A stretch of 37,358 bases of DNA from a virus. Each line of letters opens with the position of its first letter. Positions within the stretch are counted from its first letter, which is position 1. A model generated the notes under the pieces. The model did no database searches. It was not told the DNA's origin and saw only the letters and a program-made list of their open reading frames with translations. Below are positions 1,176 to 36,625 of the stretch, piece by piece. The position numbers and the translations under genes are program-made. The DNA lies in IMG/VR virus record IMGVR_UViG_3300010413_000090, positions 1 to 37,358 of that record. One strand, written 5' to 3'.

Positions 1176-1393
1176 TGGCAAGCCTATGCCTACACTGTGG
1201 TAAGGAGGCCAACATCCCTGGGTGGTTTCACCTATGCGTTGGGTGTGTGGATAGCCCCATTGCCAAGCGCATTGAGGAGACACTGAGCTTGAAGGAGTGC
1301 AAATCCTGCTCAGCATTGTTTAAACAGATGCCAGTAAACGAAATTTGTTGGGTCTGTGGTGGACGAGTAAGACATATAAGGGGTCAAACGTGA
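1175..1393 (+). CDS. Small double zinc-ribbon protein, 72 aa
   Basis: Four CxxC pairs (C5xxC8, C21xxC24, C42xxC45, C58xxC61) suggest two four-cysteine zinc ribbons in 72 residues. Such proteins commonly bind nucleic acid or protein partners, but no family is recognised. The start overlaps the previous stop by one base, and the end overlaps the GTG start of the next gene by four, so it sits inside a coupled operon. Zinc binding is inferred from cysteine spacing only. Confidence 0.75.
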   Translation: MASLCLHCGKEANIPGWFHLCVGCVDSPIAKRIEETLSLKECKSCSALFKQMPVNEICWVCGGRVRHIRGQT

Positions 1394-2208
1394 TAGATTT
1401 GGAGTACGCAAAGTGGTTGGCAAGGGTGGCACACCATGGTCAGGTGGATAAGAGCAGCAAGCCATACTATGAACACGTATGGCGTGTGGGTGACCGACTA
1501 AAGGAGACAGGGCACGATGATGAGGTGGTAGCAGCGGGCTACCTTCATGATGTACTGGAGGCTGAGTGGTGTGGCCCCGAGTTCCTCGATGAAGCCTTTG
1601 GAGGCAGGGTTGCTGATCTGGTCTTCATGTTGACTAGAGGTACGGACCAATGGTATATGGACTACATAAAGAGTCTTTGCGAGGACAAGGACGCTGTTGC
1701 AATCAAGATTGCAGACATACTAGATAACCTACGCCCTGGTGGGACAAGTAGCCTCCTCTCGGTCGAGCGTGATCGGTACACCAGAGCATTAAATGTACTG
1801 TATGATGCGCTGCATGGAGACGGAAGTCCCGTAGTTCATAAGATCACTATTCCTACTGCCTCTGACATGGCGGATACTACACTGGGGCCATGGTACTACA
1901 ACGAATCAGTGGACCTTGGAGATTGGATGCCCTGCATAGGGACAAGGGAGGACTCAGGACAGGGGGACATCTACGCATACAGCGGACAGCGATACCTTGT
2001 CTGCGCCTTTCACCCGAGCTTTAATGTATCCAAGGCTGACGCACAGCTAATGGCGAGTGCTCCTATGCTAGTAGCGGAGATCAGCCGACTAAAGCAACTG
2101 CTGTCGGTGGAACAAAGGACAAGCAATAACCTTCGTGAGTCACTTGCATCGGTGGAGCGACAGCTTGTCATCGCTGTCGGAGAGTCAGTAAAGAATGACA
2201 TGGGCTGA
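1390..2208 (+). CDS. HD-domain phosphohydrolase, (p)ppGpp hydrolase-like, with C-terminal phage domain
   Basis: I chose GTG at 1390 because it makes a GTGA overlap with the upstream stop and has AAGGGG six bases before it; the frame extends upstream to a TTG at 1345. Residues 1-125 match the RelA/SpoT/MESH1-type HD fold: AHHGQVDKSSKPYYEHV (H29), LHDVLE (H53-D54) and IKIADILDNLRP (D109) supply the usual HD metal ligands. This family removes the 3' pyrophosphate of (p)ppGpp. No synthetase domain is present. The C-terminal half (about 155-272) has a KADAQLMASAPMLVAEI segment like those at the ends of many small phage proteins, then a coiled-coil-like tail. Alarmone hydrolysis is inferred; another nucleotide substrate is possible. 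Confidence 0.8.
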   Translation: MIDLEYAKWLARVAHHGQVDKSSKPYYEHVWRVGDRLKETGHDDEVVAAGYLHDVLEAEWCGPEFLDEAFGGRVADLVFMLTRGTDQWYMDYIKSLCEDKDAVAIKIADILDNLRPGGTSSLLSVERDRYTRALNVLYDALHGDGSPVVHKITIPTASDMADTTLGPWYYNESVDLGDWMPCIGTREDSGQGDIYAYSGQRYLVCAFHPSFNVSKADAQLMASAPMLVAEISRLKQLLSVEQRTSNNLRESLASVERQLVIAVGESVKNDMG

Positions 2209-3170: not shown

Positions 3171-4859
3171 GTGGACTATTCCAGGCACTACAACAAGCGA
3201 CAGACACCCCAGACAGAGGCAATCCCCGGCAAGGACATGGTGGAGAACAGTGCTGGTGGCTACGCCTTTGCTGTGGACGATTGGACTCGGCTAAGTAGGT
3301 TCCTTGTTCTCGGTACAGAGGGCGGAACATATTATGCCACAGAGAGAAAGCTCACCATCGACAACGCCAAGGTTGTAGACCGCTGCATTAAGGCAGACGG
3401 CCCCAGGGTGGTCCGCACCATCACAGAGCTTTCGGATAGCGGTCGAGCCCCCAAGAATGACCCGGCCCTGTTCGCTCTTGCCATGTGTGCTGCGGCTGAG
3501 GACACTACCACAAGACAGCTTGCGTTTGCTGCTCTGCCCAAGGTGGCAAGGATCGGCACCCATTTGTTCCACTTTGCACAATACGCAAATGGACTGCGTG
3601 GGCTGGGTGGTCGTGGCATCAAGAGAGCCATAGCCAACTGGTACTTGGAGAGGGGCACCGACAAGCTGGCCCTTCAAGCAGTAAAGTACAGGAGCCGTGA
3701 TGGCTGGAGCCATCGGGATCTGCTGCGATTGTCTCACCCCAAGGCAGACAACGAGGTTCAGAACAATATCTTCAACTACATTACACAAGGTAACGTGGTT
3801 GATAACCTACCGCAGATCATCCTGGCAACACAGGAGATCCACAACTATGTGGACTTCTGCAAGGATGCCGCAAATAAGGTAGGAAACACCACCCTCAAGA
3901 TCGACAGCGTGACCCTCGACAAGATCGCCTCGATCATCGTTGAGCATCAACTACCCAGGGAGGTGGTACCTACCGAGCTATTGAAGTATATGCAAATATG
4001 GGCTGCACTCCTGCCCCATATGCCCTTGACTGCCATGTTGAGAAACCTCAACAAGATGACAGTAGTGGGACTGCTGCAACAGCTATCGGCTGCAACCGGT
4101 CATGTGTGCACCGCACTGACTGACAAGGATGCCCTAAAGAGGGCGAGAATCCACCCTCTGTCTGTCGTCCAGGCACTACGCATATACTCTAGGGGGTACG
4201 GAGATAGGGGCGGTTTGGCATGGAGCCCTGTTCCTCAGATCCTCACCGCGCTAAATGATTCATTCTACCTGGCGTTCGACCACCTTGAGCCGACGAACAA
4301 GAGGTGGGTGCTTGCGGTGGATGTCTCTGGCTCCATGGATGGTGGTGAGATCGCTGGTATGAGGGGAATGACCCCCAGAGACGGCAGCATCGTCATGACT
4401 CTGGCTACCCTGCACACTGAGCCTCAGTGTGCTACGGTGGCGTTCTCGTCCGTGTCAAGACAGAACGTCACCAGATTCAATTGGTCTGGTGATGCCATTG
4501 TCGATCTTCCTCTGACGAGGGGCATGAACCTCAATGCTGCCATCGACACGGCTAAGATGCTACCCTTTGGTGGCACTGACTGTGCTCAGCCTATGCTGTG
4601 GGCCATCGAAAACAATGTAGAGGCAGACATCTTCGTAATCTACACAGACAACGAGACATGGGCTGGCATGGTCCACCCGGTACAGGCACTAGATATGTAC
4701 CGGCAGAAGACAGGCATCCCGGCCAAGCTGGCTGTCGTTGCCATGACTGCCAATGATGTCTCCATAGCAGACCCAAACGATCCTGGGATGTTGGACTTTG
4801 TGGGGCTTGACAGCAGCACTCCTGCCGTGCTACAATCCTTTGCGTCCGACAACCTTTAG
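3171..4859 (+). CDS. rsr: Ro60-like RNA-binding protein (TROVE + von Willebrand A domains)
   Basis: The 562-residue protein has the Ro60/Rsr architecture at close to the usual length. Residues about 20-370 form the helical-repeat TROVE region (for example ALFALAMCAAAEDTTTRQLA, RGLGGRGIKRAIANWYLER, LKYMQIWAALLPHMPLTAML). Residues about 378-555 form a VWA domain with the MIDAS motif DVSGS near 384, the GGTD threonine near 468 and the TDNETW aspartate near 493. Ro proteins are ring-shaped and bind Y RNAs on the outer surface and misfolded or processed RNA ends in the central hole; in Deinococcus, Rsr works with PNPase. The start is GTG at 3171 with GGAG upstream. The stop lies two bases before the first of four Y-RNA-like folds, which strongly supports the assignment. 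No PNPase gene is seen here. Confidence 0.95.
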   Translation: MDYSRHYNKRQTPQTEAIPGKDMVENSAGGYAFAVDDWTRLSRFLVLGTEGGTYYATERKLTIDNAKVVDRCIKADGPRVVRTITELSDSGRAPKNDPALFALAMCAAAEDTTTRQLAFAALPKVARIGTHLFHFAQYANGLRGLGGRGIKRAIANWYLERGTDKLALQAVKYRSRDGWSHRDLLRLSHPKADNEVQNNIFNYITQGNVVDNLPQIILATQEIHNYVDFCKDAANKVGNTTLKIDSVTLDKIASIIVEHQLPREVVPTELLKYMQIWAALLPHMPLTAMLRNLNKMTVVGLLQQLSAATGHVCTALTDKDALKRARIHPLSVVQALRIYSRGYGDRGGLAWSPVPQILTALNDSFYLAFDHLEPTNKRWVLAVDVSGSMDGGEIAGMRGMTPRDGSIVMTLATLHTEPQCATVAFSSVSRQNVTRFNWSGDAIVDLPLTRGMNLNAAIDTAKMLPFGGTDCAQPMLWAIENNVEADIFVIYTDNETWAGMVHPVQALDMYRQKTGIPAKLAVVAMTANDVSIADPNDPGMLDFVGLDSSTPAVLQSFASDNL

Positions 4860-4861
4860 TT

Positions 4862-4935
4862 GTTGATACGAACCGAAGAGATTAGCTTATCTCATCGTAA
4901 AGAAACCGCTAGTCTCACAACTTGTTTGTATCAGC
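4862..4935 (+). ncRNA. Y-RNA-like RNA, copy 1
   Basis: The RNA begins just after the Ro60 stop. Outer stem 4862-4873 pairs with 4924-4935 over 12 bp (three wobbles at most). An internal loop follows: CGAA (4874-4877) against ACAACTT (4917-4923). The upper stem is GAGATTAGC (4878-4886) with GCTAGTCTC (4908-4916), and a 21-nt loop begins TTATCT. This is the Ro-binding layout of Y RNAs: the order CCGAAG, stem, TTATCTC resembles vertebrate Y RNAs (CCGAAGG, stem, GUUAUCUC), and ACTTG sits at the matching 3' place. A short T-tract (CTTTTG) follows. Expression is not shown; structure and position are. Confidence 0.85.
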
Positions 4936-4943
4936 TTTTGTTA

Positions 4944-5032
4944 GGGATGGACCGACGTAGTAGGGTTATCTGCAAAGGTGCTCTCGTTAGGGAGTCTATA
5001 GAAAAGTCCTGCTGCACTAGCTTGTCCATCTT
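4944..5032 (+). ncRNA. Y-RNA-like RNA, copy 2 (with extra apical hairpin)
   Basis: GATGGAC (4946-4952) pairs with GTCCATC (5024-5030). The internal loop has CGAC (4953-4956) opposite ACTAGCTT (5016-5023). The upper stem GTAGTAGG (4957-4964) pairs with CCTGCTGC (5008-5015), 8 bp including two wobbles. The apical region begins GTTATCT, as in the other copies, and is the longest of the four at 43 nt; it holds a second hairpin, GCTCTC (4980-4985) with GGGAGT (4990-4995). Stem sequences are unrelated to copy 1, yet the CCGA, TTATCT and CTTG boxes and their spacing are kept. Confidence 0.82.
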
Positions 5033-5037
5033 CTGTT

Positions 5038-5110
5038 GTTCAACGAACCGAAGAGATTAGCTTATCTCGTCGTAAAGAAACCGCTAGTCTCACAACTTGT
5101 TCGTTGTAAC
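5038..5110 (+). ncRNA. Y-RNA-like RNA, copy 3 (near-duplicate core of copy 1)
   Basis: Outer stem CAACGAAC (5041-5048) pairs perfectly with GTTCGTTG (5099-5106); GTT (5038-5040) can extend it with AAC (5108-5110) across one bulged T. The core 5044-5103 matches 4869-4928 of copy 1 in all but two of 60 positions. One difference (C5102 for T4927) changes a G-U pair to G-C. The outer stem sequence differs from copy 1 but remains complementary, as expected if structure is under selection. Confidence 0.85.
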
Positions 5111-5114
5111 TTGT

Positions 5115-5180
5115 GTTTGCGAGCCGACTGGTAAGGGTTATCTTGCAATGATCTCCTGACCAACCTACTTGCTCGCTAAC
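5115..5180 (+). ncRNA. Y-RNA-like RNA, copy 4
   Basis: GCGAGC (5119-5124) pairs with GCTCGC (5171-5176), with GTT/AAC extending the stem beyond one mismatch. CGAC (5125-5128) faces ACCTACTT (5163-5170). The upper stem TGGTAAGG (5129-5136) pairs with CCTGACCA (5155-5162) with one A-G mismatch. The 18-nt loop begins GTTATCT. All boxes shared by the other copies are present. The 3' end runs straight into the terminator hairpin, so this is probably the last RNA of the transcript. Confidence 0.8.
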
Positions 5181-5223
5181 CCCCCCCAACGTGCAGTCCA
5201 GAGGGTGCGTTGGGGGGGTTTTT
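5178..5223 (+). terminator. Strong intrinsic terminator after the Y-RNA cluster
   Basis: CCCCCCCAACG (5181-5191) pairs with CGTTGGGGGGG (5208-5218), 11 bp, and can be extended inward with wobble pairs. TTTTT follows immediately. This is a textbook rho-independent terminator and the clearest one in the window. It closes the Ro60/Y-RNA transcription unit and separates it from the radical SAM gene. Confidence 0.95.
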
Positions 5224-5256
5224 GTTTGCCCAAAAGACATAAGGGAAATAAGGTAG

Positions 5257-6123
5257 ATGGGTTGCCTAAACGAAGAGTGTGATGTTGAACATATGTTCGG
5301 TAACATACATCTAAGTGGGCCGTGCAATAGACAGTGCTACTTCTGCATCGGCCAGCACATGATGGCACTAGACAGCTACAACAATCTGGATAAGTGGCCA
5401 TTGGCAGGGATAGATAGATTCGTTACTCTATGCAAGGAGTATGGCGTAGAGGACGTTAACGTGACTGGATCAAACACAGACCCCCTGCTTTATAGGCACA
5501 CTGAAAAGCTAGTTGGGTGGCTCAGGTTGGTCTGGGATGATGTAAAGATAGGCATACGGACCAATGGGGCTGTCCCTCCTGATGTGTCGAAACACACATG
5601 GTCCCTGTATGACAAGGGTAGCATCTCACTGACTAGCTTGGACCCAAGGATATACGCAGCGACGATGGGTAACGGCTACCCGCCAGACATTCCTGGTATA
5701 CTACAGGTTGCGCCATTCATCCCCAAGGTAAACATTGTTCTATGTCCTGCGGCGGTAGAGGGTAGGGATTTGCTCATTACCCTTAATCGCCTGCGTGAAA
5801 TGGGCATAGAAGAAGTCCACCTAAGGGAGCCGTATGGGCAGCCGCACATCGGAAACCCAATGTCAGTTGCAGGATTTGACAGGACAGGGACCCTGTTCGG
5901 GATGCCAGTATATAAGTGCGGAACTGTAGATGTAGTCTACTGGGACGTACACTATGTCAAGATCGGAAGCATAAACCTGTATGCCAACGGCAAAACAAAC
6001 TTGACATACCCTATAACAAAAGGACATTGCCCGCAGACAGGTAGCGTGAAGCCACAGTCTAGCTTCATGTATAGTGGAAGGGTCAGGGAACAATGGTTAA
6101 ACCCCCGTAGCTCAGATGGTTAG
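5257..6123 (+). CDS. Radical SAM protein
   Basis: Near the N-terminus, GPCNRQCYFC gives C23-x3-C27-x2-C30, the signature that binds the 4Fe-4S cluster used to cleave S-adenosylmethionine. The rest of the 288 residues fits a partial TIM barrel: EDVNVTGSNTDPLLY, KIGIRTNGAV and SISLTSLDPR correspond to the strands that bind SAM and substrate. The substrate is unknown; radical SAM enzymes modify RNA, peptides, cofactors or nucleotides. ATG at 5257 has AAGG close upstream. It is the first gene after the Ro60/Y-RNA terminator, and its last codons (NPRSSDG) lie inside the tRNA at 6101. Involvement with RNA is suggested only by these neighbours. Confidence 0.88.
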   Translation: MGCLNEECDVEHMFGNIHLSGPCNRQCYFCIGQHMMALDSYNNLDKWPLAGIDRFVTLCKEYGVEDVNVTGSNTDPLLYRHTEKLVGWLRLVWDDVKIGIRTNGAVPPDVSKHTWSLYDKGSISLTSLDPRIYAATMGNGYPPDIPGILQVAPFIPKVNIVLCPAAVEGRDLLITLNRLREMGIEEVHLREPYGQPHIGNPMSVAGFDRTGTLFGMPVYKCGTVDVVYWDVHYVKIGSINLYANGKTNLTYPITKGHCPQTGSVKPQSSFMYSGRVREQWLNPRSSDG

Positions 6124-6197
6124 AGCAACCGGCCTATAACCGGTCATAGTGTCTGATATACACAAGGTCGTGGGTTCGAGTCCCACCGGGGGTACCA
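6101..6197 (+). tRNA. tRNA, probably Ile (TAT anticodon), with an unusual insertion
   Basis: Acceptor ACCCCCG (6101-6107) pairs with CGGGGGT (6187-6193), then A and an encoded CCA. The D arm is GCTC/GAGC (6110-6126). The T arm is GTGGG-TTCGAGT-CCCAC (6170-6186). The first anticodon-like arm, ACCGG-CCTATAA-CCGGT (6128-6144), gives TAT for the AUA codon but has C at position 33. A second stem-loop, GTGT-CTGATAT-ACAC (6149-6163), precedes AGGTC, the usual short variable loop; as an anticodon arm it would read GAT with the normal T33. Either it is a long variable arm, which an isoleucine tRNA should not have, or it is the true anticodon arm with an insertion before it. Both readings are isoleucine. 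ATA codons occur in many genes here. Confidence 0.8.
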
Positions 6198-8999: not shown

Positions 9000-10106
9000 A
9001 TGTCAACCAAGTTCGAAGAAGCATTGATGGAGAAGACCCCCGCTGAGTTGAAGGACTACTTGGCGCTGATGCTACCGACTAGCGATTACGTACCCACTAT
9101 TGCCCTTGGACCTCCCGGCATCGGGAAGACAAGGGTGATTCAGCAGTTGGCAAAGGAGCTTAACTACAAGCTGGTCGAGAGTATCCTGTCAATCAAGGAG
9201 CCGACAGACGTTAGCGGTATTCCCAACGTCAGCAAGTGCGGGCAGTATTTCGAGTACGTCCCCGAGCGTCTGTACTATGAGGCCAGCACTGAGGTCGATG
9301 GACCGCCGACCATCATGTTCTTTGATGACCTGCCTGTGGCACACCCACAGACACAAGCAGCGTTCTTCAAGGTAGTTGACGAGCGCAGAGTAGGCAGCGT
9401 AATCCTGAGGGATAACGTCAAGATCGTAGCTGCCGGGAATAGACAGGGTGATGCTGCTGCTGCACATGATATTCCTACCGCTCTGGCCAACAGGTTCTCG
9501 TTCCAGAAGATCAAGGTGTGTGCAAAGGCATGGTTGGAATGGGCAACTGGAAGTGGTAACATTCATCCTACCGTGGTTGGCTACATCATGAAGCAGAGGG
9601 AGCCGGATCTGCATAGCTTTGACCCGGCGTCCTCGGAAAAGGCGTTCGCATCACCTAGGACATGGGAGTTTGTATCCAAGCACCTACGAACACATGATGC
9701 TTTCGGTAGGACACTGGACGAGAGAGACATTGCCGGTCTTATTGGGCCAGGCATTGCATCGAAGTTCAAGGCGTTTCTGGAGTATGGGCGACAGGCTGTA
9801 CCGATTGAGGACATCATCAAAGATCCTGAGGGTGCCAGGGTTCCTGCCAAGAATGAGGTTGATTGTCTGTTCGTAACGATATCAAACATGATCTACCACA
9901 TCAAGGAGAACCCGAAGGCATGGGAGCCGTTCTCTTTGTACATTCTAAGGGATGAGGTAAGCGATGACATTGCGTTCATGCTAGCAACTCATATTGCAAA
10001 GGCGGTGCTGTGGTCTGATACAGACGATGGAAAGAAGGCAGTAGACAGTGCAATATTCCAGCGTCTTGTCGTGCAGTTCCGTGACCACATTGACATGGGA
10101 CGTTAG
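9000..10106 (+). CDS. MoxR-type AAA+ ATPase, 368 aa
   Basis: Walker A is GPPGIGKT (residues 37-44) and Walker B is IMFFDDLP (about 103-110). They are followed by AAFFKVVDERRVGS and VAAGNRQGD, the sensor region typical of MoxR proteins, then NRFSF. ATG at 9000 follows GGAGAAGAG. MoxR ATPases act as chaperones that remodel or insert metal cofactors into a partner, usually a VWA protein encoded beside them; the next gene, three bases away, is such a protein. The target in this phage is unknown. Confidence 0.92.
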   Translation: MSTKFEEALMEKTPAELKDYLALMLPTSDYVPTIALGPPGIGKTRVIQQLAKELNYKLVESILSIKEPTDVSGIPNVSKCGQYFEYVPERLYYEASTEVDGPPTIMFFDDLPVAHPQTQAAFFKVVDERRVGSVILRDNVKIVAAGNRQGDAAAAHDIPTALANRFSFQKIKVCAKAWLEWATGSGNIHPTVVGYIMKQREPDLHSFDPASSEKAFASPRTWEFVSKHLRTHDAFGRTLDERDIAGLIGPGIASKFKAFLEYGRQAVPIEDIIKDPEGARVPAKNEVDCLFVTISNMIYHIKENPKAWEPFSLYILRDEVSDDIAFMLATHIAKAVLWSDTDDGKKAVDSAIFQRLVVQFRDHIDMGR

Positions 10107-10109
10107 AAG

Positions 10110-11525
10110 ATGGCAAGACAATTCAAAAGGCGTGACCAAATAGCCGACGAGGAACGCACACCAGCAACAATAAAGGCGGCAGAGAAGAAGCTGGCTATGG
10201 CCAGGATTACGCTGCTGCGTACCTTTCCTTTATTCGGTGAGATAAGTGTGCGTATGCAGGTTAAGCCAACGTACTCTATCCACACAACAGCAGTAGATCA
10301 GCACAAGACATTCTGGTACAACCCAGAATGGATATGTCTATTGAGCAGGAACGATGTGATCTCAAGCACAGCGCATGAGATTGGGCATCTCATACAAGAC
10401 CTGTTCAGTAGAACTCCAGCAGTCGTAATCCCACACATATGGAACGCAGCAGCGGACGATATGGTGGATACGATGATGATAGATGCTGGCGTTGAGGGCG
10501 GGGAGTGGAGAAAGTCAAAGTGTACGCCTGAGATACAAGAGAAAGCAAGGGCAGCCAGGACCACAGAGCAGCGGTATCGAGAACGGTTGCAGGAAATGGA
10601 ACAAAGTGAGTGTCCTGCTTGTGCTCAGATGGCAAAGATGGCACTAAACGGTGAGATAGAGGAACATAACGAAGGAGATGAGAACTGCGGCTGTGGCTGC
10701 AAAGAGGATGGAGATAAGAAGGAAGGCGAACAAGGTGGGGAGCCTAGAGAGGACGAGGGGAAAGGCGGCTCGTCAAACAAAGAAGGTGGCCCTAGCAAGC
10801 CTGAACATACCTGCGGTAGAGGGGAGCACCCTTGCTGCACAGCAACTATGATGGGACAGGAAAAGCTAACCCCACAACAGCAGGCAGAGATAAATTCAAA
10901 GTGGAGGACAATAATAGTAGGCGCAGCTCTTGCTGCCCAGTCAAGAGGTGACATACCTGGAGAGTTGGAGGAGTTCCTTGCAAAATTAAGCAAGCCGAAG
11001 GTAGATTGGAGGGACCACGTGCGCCTGATGGCAACATCTGTGTTCAACGATAGGTATACGTACTATCGTAGAGCACGTAGGGCATATGCAATGGGACTCA
11101 TACTGCCGGGTAGGACAAAGGCCACCAAGGGAGCAGTAGGAGTATTCGATACCTCGTTTTCTATGTCAGATGGAGAACTGCATAGGTGCTTCTCGGAATT
11201 TGTGGGGCTGATGGAACAGTGTGGGTGCCCTCAGTTGGAAGTAATCTTCCATGATGCAGTCGTGTACTACCAGGGTGAGCACACAAAGTTTGACATGGGA
11301 AAGATAAAAGTACAAAGGGGAGGAACAGACCACAGACCTGTATTCGAGCGATTAAATGACAAGAAGAGAAAGGAGCCGCCTGCAATGGTGGTCTGCTTCA
11401 CGGATCTGGAGACGGTATTCCCAGAAGAACTACCATCGTACCCTGTGCTGTGGTGCTGCCCAGAGAGCAGCAAAGACCATAAGGTACCGTTTGGCAAGAA
11501 GATCGTCGTGAATATGGAGGACTGA
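10110..11525 (+). CDS. Metallopeptidase-like + VWA-like protein (DUF2201 type), MoxR partner
   Basis: The N-terminal domain has HEIGH at residues 89-93, the HExxH zinc motif, followed by NAAADDMVDTMM, which may give a third ligand. A low-complexity Gly/Glu/Lys linker with clustered cysteines (GCGCKEDGD; CGRGEHPCC) spans about 175-250. The C-terminal VWA-like domain has a MIDAS-type FDTSFSMSD near 347 and CFTDLE near 430. This architecture is known from bacterial operons with MoxR ATPases. ATG at 10110 lies three bases after the MoxR stop, so the two are cotranslated. Whether the peptidase site is active is not shown. Confidence 0.88.
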   Translation: MARQFKRRDQIADEERTPATIKAAEKKLAMARITLLRTFPLFGEISVRMQVKPTYSIHTTAVDQHKTFWYNPEWICLLSRNDVISSTAHEIGHLIQDLFSRTPAVVIPHIWNAAADDMVDTMMIDAGVEGGEWRKSKCTPEIQEKARAARTTEQRYRERLQEMEQSECPACAQMAKMALNGEIEEHNEGDENCGCGCKEDGDKKEGEQGGEPREDEGKGGSSNKEGGPSKPEHTCGRGEHPCCTATMMGQEKLTPQQQAEINSKWRTIIVGAALAAQSRGDIPGELEEFLAKLSKPKVDWRDHVRLMATSVFNDRYTYYRRARRAYAMGLILPGRTKATKGAVGVFDTSFSMSDGELHRCFSEFVGLMEQCGCPQLEVIFHDAVVYYQGEHTKFDMGKIKVQRGGTDHRPVFERLNDKKRKEPPAMVVCFTDLETVFPEELPSYPVLWCCPESSKDHKVPFGKKIVVNMED

Positions 11526-35342: not shown

Positions 35343-35649
35343 GTTGACTGAGGTCTTTGGGCTGGAAGAAGGAGATGTCGAGAGCAGGCCATCAGGCTCA
35401 CCAGGCACCGACATCATGATGAGCGCAAAGGCAAGGAAGAAGATAGGTGTCAGCTTCGAGTGCAAGAACACTACAGGCACACCATCACGTAGTCAGTTGG
35501 AGCAGTCCAGGGCCAACAAGATCCCTGGTACCTTAGCTGGAGTTGTTTGGAAACCACGTGGCCATCGGTATGATAAGTCGCTTGTAATCTTCGACTTCGA
35601 TGAGTTCATAGCGTGGGTTAAAGAAAGGACAGATAATGTCGCTGATTGA
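35284..35649 (+). CDS. PD-(D/E)XK-type nuclease, Holliday-junction-resolvase-like, 121 aa
   Basis: GTG at 35284 has TAGGAG 6 nt upstream, inside the end of the ClpP-like gene. KGRKLQAFVRDRLTEVFG, then GSPGTDIMM and VSFECKN, is the G.(x)D...ExK core of the PD-(D/E)XK fold (Asp near 42, Glu-Cys-Lys near 59-61). This small layout suits a resolvase-like enzyme that cuts branched DNA before packaging. Exact activity is inferred. Confidence 0.8.
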   Translation: MQPQSRKAKGRKLQAFVRDRLTEVFGLEEGDVESRPSGSPGTDIMMSAKARKKIGVSFECKNTTGTPSRSQLEQSRANKIPGTLAGVVWKPRGHRYDKSLVIFDFDEFIAWVKERTDNVAD

Positions 35650-36625
35650 TACGAAAGAGCAGGCGAAGCGAAAGCTTCTTAACAAGGCAAATGTTCACTC
35701 CGTTGGTATCGGACGTAAGAATGGTACTGGCGATCTGTGTGTTGTGGTAAGTGTGGACCAGAAGGTTCCGCTTGAGGAACTCAAGCGTAGCGACCGAGTC
35801 CCCAAGACTCTAGGCAACTACAAGACAGACGTCGTTGTGAAGCCGAAATTTCGTCTTTACGAAAACACAGGAAGGATGCGCCCAGCGCAGCCAGGATTGT
35901 CCATCGGGCACAAGGATATCACTGCTGGGACGTTTGGTTGCGTGGTTGAGGACAACGAGACTGGTGCGTGGCTGATTCTCAGCAACAATCACGTGCTGGC
36001 AAATGTCAACCAGGCAGAGGTCGGAGATGAGATCCTACAGCCCGGTGCACACGATGGTGGTACGGTTCCCGATGATGTGATTGGCACGCTTGAGCCGTTC
36101 GTCCCCATCGTCATGGGTAATGCCACGCCCGCAACCTGTCCGATCGCTGGCATGATCACGGACATCCTCAATGGCATGGCCAGGTTCCTTGGATCCAAGG
36201 TATACCTGTCGGCCCTTGAGGAGAACGAGGACACCAACCTGTTCGACGCAGCCCTCGCTAGGCCAATAGACCAGAGTGAGATATCCCCAGAGATTCTTGA
36301 ACTCGGGGTTCCAACGGGCTATGGCATTACGGGAGTAGGTGAGTTCGTAAAGAAGAAAGGAAGGACTTCTGATTATTCGGAAGGAACAGTCGAGCAGGTA
36401 AACGTTACAATCCAGGTACAGATGGATGAGTATGGCCTTAGCTATGCTGTCTTTGAGGATCAGGTTCTTTCTGACATTCATAGCGAGCCAGGAGACTCTG
36501 GATCTGCTATACTCAACGCCAACAACGAAGTCGTCGGTCTGCTGTTTGCTGGTGGTGATGGAACTACTGCCTTCTGCAGGATAGACCATATCCTTAGTGC
36601 CTACAATGTAAAGATTGTAACATGA
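35636..36625 (+). CDS. Trypsin-fold serine protease, 329 aa
   Basis: The triad is seen as SNNHVLAN (His near 118), FDAALARP (Asp near 203) and EPGDSGSAIL (Ser near 287), with spacing and motif wording of chymotrypsin-like proteases. The first 80 residues (VHSVGIGRKNGTGDLCVVV) resemble the pro-domain of bacterial S1-type proteases. No signal peptide is visible, so it probably acts inside the cell or in the virion. The target is unknown. It lies beside a ClpP-like protease; ATG at 35636 overlaps the previous gene by 14 nt. Confidence 0.85.
   Translation: MSLIDTKEQAKRKLLNKANVHSVGIGRKNGTGDLCVVVSVDQKVPLEELKRSDRVPKTLGNYKTDVVVKPKFRLYENTGRMRPAQPGLSIGHKDITAGTFGCVVEDNETGAWLILSNNHVLANVNQAEVGDEILQPGAHDGGTVPDDVIGTLEPFVPIVMGNATPATCPIAGMITDILNGMARFLGSKVYLSALEENEDTNLFDAALARPIDQSEISPEILELGVPTGYGITGVGEFVKKKGRTSDYSEGTVEQVNVTIQVQMDEYGLSYAVFEDQVLSDIHSEPGDSGSAILNANNEVVGLLFAGGDGTTAFCRIDHILSAYNVKIVT

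What the first reader, a model, noticed from the sequence alone, without database searches (positions are those of the whole stretch)
3171..5223. Phage-encoded Ro60 protein followed by four tandem Y-RNA-like genes and a terminator
Seen: a full TROVE + VWA gene, then within 321 nt four consecutive folds, each with an outer stem, a CCGA box facing a (C)TTG box, an upper stem and a loop beginning TTATCT, then an intrinsic terminator. Known: Ro60/Rsr binds Y RNAs, and bacterial Y RNAs lie beside rsr genes; Ro-like genes have been noted in some phages. Inferred: the phage carries a complete Ro RNP with a set of several RNAs, perhaps to steer host RNA decay or to protect or re-target phage RNAs.
Basis: partly seen in the sequence, partly recalled or inferred. 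Interest (0 to 1): 0.95.

Follow-up and report, generated by a model that had tools for sequence, protein, structure and literature searches.

The report
Phage Ro60 with four Y RNAs
A bacteriophage carries its own copy of Ro60, a ring-shaped RNA quality-control protein also found in animals, plus four small "Y RNA" partners that look strikingly like those of animals; such phage sets were already known in outline, but this is a clean, unusually arranged example.

Summary
ORF 3171-4859 is a full-length Ro60 (TROVE + Ro60-vWA; 1.9e-121 to human RO60). It is followed at 4862-5180 by four Y RNAs and a strong terminator. A covariance model built only from other phages' and bacteria's Y RNAs finds exactly these four in the window (E 3e-8 to 4e-5; next hit 1.3). 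A strict structural pattern gives 4 hits here and none in 100 shuffles. Each RNA has a lower stem with a bulged C (CCGA facing CUUG), a 9-bp upper stem, and UUAUC opening the loop. I add a promoter-like site inside the end of ro (4807-4836), the only one matching at least 11/12 in either strand of the window. No tRNA-like (YrlA) domain is present in the array or the fragment.

The kind is known: Ro60 with Y RNAs was reported for many bacteria and phages in 2014 (recalled; paper not held). The more interesting result is general: bacterial and phage "simple" Y RNAs share the architecture of nematode and vertebrate Y RNAs, including UUA(U/C)C, and some pass Rfam's cut-off for a nematode sbRNA family, against a published statement that bacterial Y RNAs are not homologous with vertebrate ones. 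Function in the phage is inferred.

The parts
3171..4859 (+). Ro60 (Rsr) protein, 562 aa: TROVE ring plus Ro60-type vWA domain
   Evidence: Pfam TROVE and vWA_Ro60; PHROG 850 RNA-binding protein; PDB human RO60 1.9e-121, Deinococcus Rsr 9.1e-120, Xenopus Ro 1.4e-118. K172, R176 and H189 align with human K170, R174 and H187 and are invariant in 16 phage Ro proteins.
4807..4836 (+). Putative sigma-70 promoter of the Y RNA array: TTGACA, 18 nt, TACAAT with a TG before the -10; inside the 3' end of ro
   Evidence: 11/12 consensus match; the only match of at least 11/12 in either strand of the 37-kb window. Consensus match only; no transcript data.
4862..4935 (+). Y RNA 1; CCGA at 4873, UUAUC loop motif, CUUG ending 4924
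   Evidence: R1 covariance model 35.0 bits, E 5.9e-7; fold z -5.3
4944..5032 (+). Y RNA 2; CCGA at 4952, CUUG ending 5024; long 36-nt loop that may form an inner hairpin
   Evidence: R1 28.0 bits, E 3.7e-5; Rfam nematode sbRNA RF01656 E 0.0028, below cut-off
5039..5109 (+). Y RNA 3; near-duplicate of Y RNA 1 with compensatory changes in the lower stem
   Evidence: R1 39.9 bits, E 3.3e-8; RF01656 E 0.0019, below cut-off; sequences compared
5115..5180 (+). Y RNA 4; CCGA at 5124, CUUG ending 5171; shortest loop
   Evidence: R1 40.2 bits, E 2.9e-8; fold z -2.5
5181..5226 (+). Intrinsic terminator: 14-bp GC-rich stem, 10-nt loop, TTTTTGTT
   Evidence: fold -28 kcal/mol, z -3.9
4935..4945 (+). U-rich spacer between Y1 and Y2; similar spacers lie before Y1 and between Y2-Y3 and Y3-Y4 (possible processing sites)
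   Evidence: sequences listed; processing is inferred

Best explanation
The locus encodes a complete phage Ro ribonucleoprotein. Ro60 is made from the ro gene. The four Y RNAs are made as a short tandem precursor from their own promoter in the end of ro (and also as the 3' tail of ro mRNA), stopped by the terminator, and cut apart in the U-rich spacers. Each Y RNA docks by its bulged-C lower stem on the outside of the Ro ring, and its 9-bp upper stem and UUAUC loop project from it. Most likely the Y RNAs gate access of misfolded or 3'-ended RNAs to the ring and act as tethers that attach Ro to an RNA-processing partner, probably the host's PNPase, so that the phage controls RNA quality control or decay during infection. 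Different loops (Y1/Y3, Y2, Y4) would allow different partners. Shown here: gene, RNAs, structure, family membership (about 0.95 likely). Inferred: transcription unit, processing, binding, gating and tethering, benefit to the phage.
For: Full-length Ro60 with the Y-RNA-contact histidine (H187, whose serine mutant lacks Y RNA binding; PMC11277228) conserved as H189. The four RNAs carry the Ro-binding features described for vertebrate Y RNAs: a lower helix, one bulged C, and a bulge on the opposite strand (PMC4726728). A model built without the window finds exactly four copies. All 191 model matches in ro loci lie on the ro strand, and the nearest upstream copy has a median distance of 93 nt from ro. 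39 canonical Y RNAs show many pair types at most stem positions. One outstanding promoter-like site and one strong terminator bracket the array. Gating and the PNPase tether are known for Deinococcus Rsr (recalled; PMC4726728, names the Ro60/Y RNA/PNPase complex RYPER).
Against: No expression or binding data. The promoter is only a consensus match. No PNPase or other nuclease gene was seen beside the locus. None of the four RNAs has the tRNA-like domain that I recall being reported in at least one Y RNA of each species studied, so the partner may differ from the known systems. The record is a fragment, so further Y RNAs elsewhere in the genome cannot be excluded.
Confidence: 0.62

Rival explanations
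1. The array is mainly a 3' UTR control element: Ro60 binds the Y hairpins in its own mRNA, protecting or limiting that message (autoregulation); separate small RNAs are incidental.
For: The first Y RNA begins 2-5 nt after the ro stop codon, so ro mRNA that runs to the terminator must carry all four.
Against: In most other loci the Y RNAs lie upstream of ro, not in its 3' UTR (11 up/3 down in named phages, 78/18 in IMG/VR, 70/7 in bacteria). The array has its own promoter-like site.
Confidence: 0.12
2. Passenger cargo: a bacterial ro-Y cassette picked up by the phage with no particular role in infection.
For: The Ro tree needs many changes between phage and bacterial labels (at least 5-9 per group forced by supported branches), so ro seems to move between phages and bacteria.
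Against: Intact ORF and motifs, and compensatory changes between Y1 and Y3, point to selection. Ro is kept across large phage groups (340 records).
Confidence: 0.15
3. The RNAs work as tRNA mimics (YrlA type), serving as substrates or decoys for tRNA enzymes.
For: Phage relatives do carry such Y RNAs (YrlA E 1.3e-7 in Sixama, 6.9e-5 in ET08, 1.2e-4 in Sparky), often near tRNA genes.
Against: No YrlA match in the whole window up to E 5; no T-arm or D-arm motif in the array.
Confidence: 0.03
4. Chance hairpins without relation to Ro60.
For: None found.
Against: None in 100 shuffles against 4 observed; independent model E 3e-8 to 4e-5; conserved in other phages and bacteria.
Confidence: 0.01

Closest known systems
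Bacterial and phage Ro60/Rsr with Y RNAs (Deinococcus Y RNA, Salmonella and Mycobacterium YrlA; Chen et al. 2014 and Sim & Wolin reviews, recalled, not held)
   Same: Ro60 ortholog with Y RNAs encoded beside it; bulged-C lower stem; multiple Y RNAs per locus; found in phages.
   Different: All four are of the simple type, with no tRNA-like domain; they lie downstream of ro with their own promoter-like site, whereas most loci have them upstream.
Nematode stem-bulge RNAs (Rfam RF01656) and vertebrate Y RNAs (RF00019)
   Different: Window copies score below the RF01656 cut-off (29-30 of 38 bits). The conserved UG-CA motif in the middle of the animal upper stem is not conserved here (upper-stem pairs vary freely). 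Bacterial-type transcription signals in place of Pol III.
YrlA (Rfam RF02553)
   Same: Beside ro in related phages; same CCGA box and loop motif at its base.
   Different: The tRNA-like domain is absent from the window's four RNAs.
IMG/VR locus L062 and Streptomyces phage Yaboi (L013)
   Same: L062 has five model matches downstream of ro; Yaboi has a simple Y RNA with the same CAACTTG box.
   Different: L062 also contains tRNA-like Y RNAs; Yaboi's Y RNA is upstream of ro.

Membership tests
Ro60/Rsr protein | TROVE ring domain followed by vWA domain over full length | tested here: met
   Pfam; end-to-end alignment to three solved Ro60/Rsr structures
Ro60/Rsr protein | Residues for Y RNA binding (H187; K170/R174 nearby) | tested here: met
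   K172, R176, H189 at aligned positions, invariant in 16 phage sequences
Ro60/Rsr protein | Binds Y RNA | not testable with these tools
   needs a binding assay
Y RNA | Lower stem with a single bulged C and a bulge on the opposite strand | tested here: met
   all four copies
[quoted passage not shown]
   9 bp (8 of 9 in Y4) directly before UUAUC in all four; in other loci, found by structure alone, 35 of 45 candidates have UUAYC against 0 of 2 on the other strand
Y RNA | Encoded beside ro | tested here: met
   2-321 nt after the ro stop
Rfam RF01656 (nematode sbRNA) | Score at or above the gathering cut-off (38 bits) | tested here: not met
   29.9 and 29.3 bits for Y3 and Y2. Met by relatives: phages L031 38.1 and Yaboi 38.2, bacterial genomes G008 (L158) 41.9 and G011 (L117) 42.4; none of 14 control genomes over cut-off
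YrlA | tRNA-like domain | tested here: not met
   no RF02553 match up to E 5; no T- or D-arm motif in the array
RYPER-type degradosome | Y RNA tethers Ro to PNPase | not testable with these tools
   no neighbour gene informs this

The most novel reading that the evidence does not exclude
Simple Y RNAs of phages and bacteria and the Y/sbRNAs of animals are one RNA family with a shared ancestral design (bulged-C Ro site, 9-bp upper stem, UUA(U/C)C loop). The loop motif, so far tied to animal DNA replication, would then be a part of the Ro particle itself, and phages would have been carrying this particle between bacteria.
Probability: 0.5. Interest if true: 0.72.

Novelty: new member of a known kind. 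Interest (0 to 1): 0.52.

Why it matters
It is a compact, self-contained Ro particle in a virus: one protein gene and four RNAs in 2 kb, easy to move to a laboratory host and test. More generally, the shared loop motif and stem length across animals, bacteria and phages speak against the view that bacterial Y RNAs are unrelated to animal ones, and suggest that the UUA(U/C)C motif serves the Ro particle rather than (only) animal DNA replication. Both points can be tested directly with bacterial or phage RNAs.

Tried and rejected
Exact-peptide search of IMG/VR with the window Ro60 and a DNA search with the Y1/Y3 core found nothing, so no close relative of this phage is available and comparison rests on distant loci. 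Rfam at curated thresholds finds none of the four. Protein-coding explanation of 4862-5180: only short overlapping frames, and the RNA folds explain the conservation. YrlA/tRNA-mimic reading: rejected for this window. RNAalifold on the MAFFT alignment recovers only the lower stem because upper stems and loops vary in length; I tested the upper stem by cognate against shuffled partners instead (summed score 274 against 174 +/- 7). A worry that the UUAYC motif was an artefact of my own search pattern was tested by a structure-only scan. Ro tree: the window is a long single branch with no supported neighbour, so no donor is named. Richness in tRNA genes (12 of 14 Ro phages have at least 15) was noted but not used, since these are large genomes and I had no control set. 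The Chen 2014, Sim & Wolin 2018 and Sim 2020 papers are not held. No structure prediction was run, because the sequence match to solved Ro60 structures is already decisive.

Full report
What is there. The window is an IMG/VR virus record of 37,358 bases, classed without completeness and probably a fragment. Its other genes are those of a tailed-phage replication region: DNA polymerase, DnaB-type helicase, ligase, UvsX-like recombinase, SbcC-like nuclease, sigma-factor-like protein and gp32-like protein. ORF 3171-4859 is Ro60: TROVE and Ro60 vWA domains, end-to-end alignment to human RO60, Deinococcus Rsr and Xenopus Ro at E 1e-118 to 1e-121. The histidine needed for Y RNA binding (H187; PMC11277228) is H189 here and invariant in 16 phage Ro proteins. 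The vWA metal-site motif DxSxS is present (DVSGS, in the alignment).

The four RNAs. After the ro stop codon lie four hairpins, each with a lower stem, CCGA facing CUUG with a bulged C, one unpaired base, a 9-bp upper stem (8 of 9 in Y4), UUAUCU at the start of the loop, and a 4-5-nt bulge on the 3' side. The strict form of this pattern occurs four times on the + strand, not at all on the - strand, and in none of 100 dinucleotide shuffles. Y1 and Y3 are near-copies whose lower stems differ by two double compensatory changes, which is evidence for selection on pairing inside the window itself (sequences). Rfam's best matches are a nematode stem-bulge RNA family, RF01656, for Y3 (E 0.0019) and Y2 (E 0.0028), under that family's cut-off.

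Independent test. I collected ro loci from named phages, IMG/VR and bacterial genomes, picked 34 simple Y RNA candidates from them (aligned), and built a covariance model without any window sequence. It finds the four window copies at E 2.9e-8, 3.3e-8, 5.9e-7 and 3.7e-5; the next hit in the window is at 1.3. Over all loci it gives 191 matches at E up to 0.05, every one on the ro strand; these counts include the 34 training sequences and the window's four. In 21 whole phage or virus records, every one has at least one match at E up to 0.1, though some of those are weak.

Transcription. The only promoter-like site in either strand of the window with at least 11 of 12 consensus bases is TTGACA-18-TACAAT at 4807-4836, with a TG before the -10. 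It lies inside the end of ro and would start RNA near 4843, about 20 nt before Y1. The array ends in a 14-bp terminator stem with a T run. Together these suggest a separate transcription unit of roughly 380 nt, cut into four RNAs, possibly in the U-rich spacers. This is inference from sequence.

Comparison with other loci. Most Y RNAs lie upstream of ro (78 up, 18 down in IMG/VR; 70 and 7 in bacteria; 11 and 3 in named phages), a median of 93 nt away when upstream. Downstream arrays occur but are less common; L062 has five model matches downstream. Several relatives carry YrlA-type Y RNAs with tRNA-like arms; the window has none. Phage and bacterial Ro proteins are interleaved in the tree, with repeated transfer implied; the window's own place is unresolved.

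A wider point. In nematodes and vertebrates the loop of Y/sbRNAs starts with UUA(U/C)C, and the nematode upper stem has nine base pairs (PMC4450293). The same two features appear in simple Y RNAs of phages and bacteria: of 39 canonical copies, 30 have UUAUC and 9 UUACC, though these were selected for that motif. Without requiring it, 35 of 45 structural candidates on the ro strand have it, against 0 of 2 on the other strand. Two phages (L031, Yaboi) and two bacterial genomes (those of L158 and L117) have RNAs over Rfam's curated cut-off for the nematode family, and none of 14 control genomes does. A 2015 review states that bacterial Y RNAs are not homologous with vertebrate ones (PMC4726728). 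The evidence here favours one family, though convergence imposed by Ro60 binding is not excluded, and I could not check whether the 2014 paper already noted the motif. The animal UG-CA motif in the upper stem, also needed for replication activity, is not conserved in phages and bacteria.

What is known. Ro60 with Y RNAs in phages is not new. I recall Chen et al. 2014 (RNA) reporting likely Y RNAs near Ro60 in over 250 bacterial and phage species, at least one per species with a tRNA-like domain; the paper is not held. Held papers mention TROVE proteins in jumbo phages (PMC7824862) and phage YrlA (PMC7765460). Hence: a new member of a known kind, with an uncommon arrangement.

Function. Most likely a phage Ro particle in which Y RNAs gate the ring and tether a nuclease, as described for Deinococcus. 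Nothing here tests that step.

Noticed in passing
window 6101-6197 (+): tRNA-Ile(UAU) gene with an unusually long variable region and encoded CCA, overlapping the last 23 nt of a radical-SAM-like ORF (5257-6123).
   Followed up: partly
window 5257-6123 (+): Radical SAM-like protein directly downstream of the Y RNA array (Pfam E 0.00018, below the curated cut-off; no PHROG match).
   Followed up: no
window 9000-11525 (+): AAA ATPase followed by a DUF2201 metallopeptidase-like/vWA protein: a second vWA gene pair close to ro.
   Followed up: no
window 1345-2208 (+): HD_4-domain protein (PF13328) upstream of ro.
   Followed up: no
window 35636-36625 (+): Trypsin-like peptidase domain protein in a phage replication region.
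   Followed up: no
L009 4985-5041 and 4264-4675 (Gordonia phage GMA2): Pistol ribozyme (56.8 bits) and a tmRNA gene between ro and a tRNA cluster; Sixama (L008) also has a tmRNA.
   Followed up: no
L055 2319-2434; L077 2242-2579: wcaG RNA match above its cut-off next to Y RNAs in L055, and a manA RNA match below its cut-off in L077.
   Followed up: no
named Ro-bearing phages: 12 of 14 carry at least 15 tRNA genes, and ro often lies in or beside the tRNA cluster; no control set was examined.
   Followed up: partly
L012 Microbacterium phage Cece 188-362 and 2005-2324: Five Y RNA candidates in one phage locus, mixing simple and tRNA-like types and using CATG in place of CTTG in the box.
   Followed up: partly
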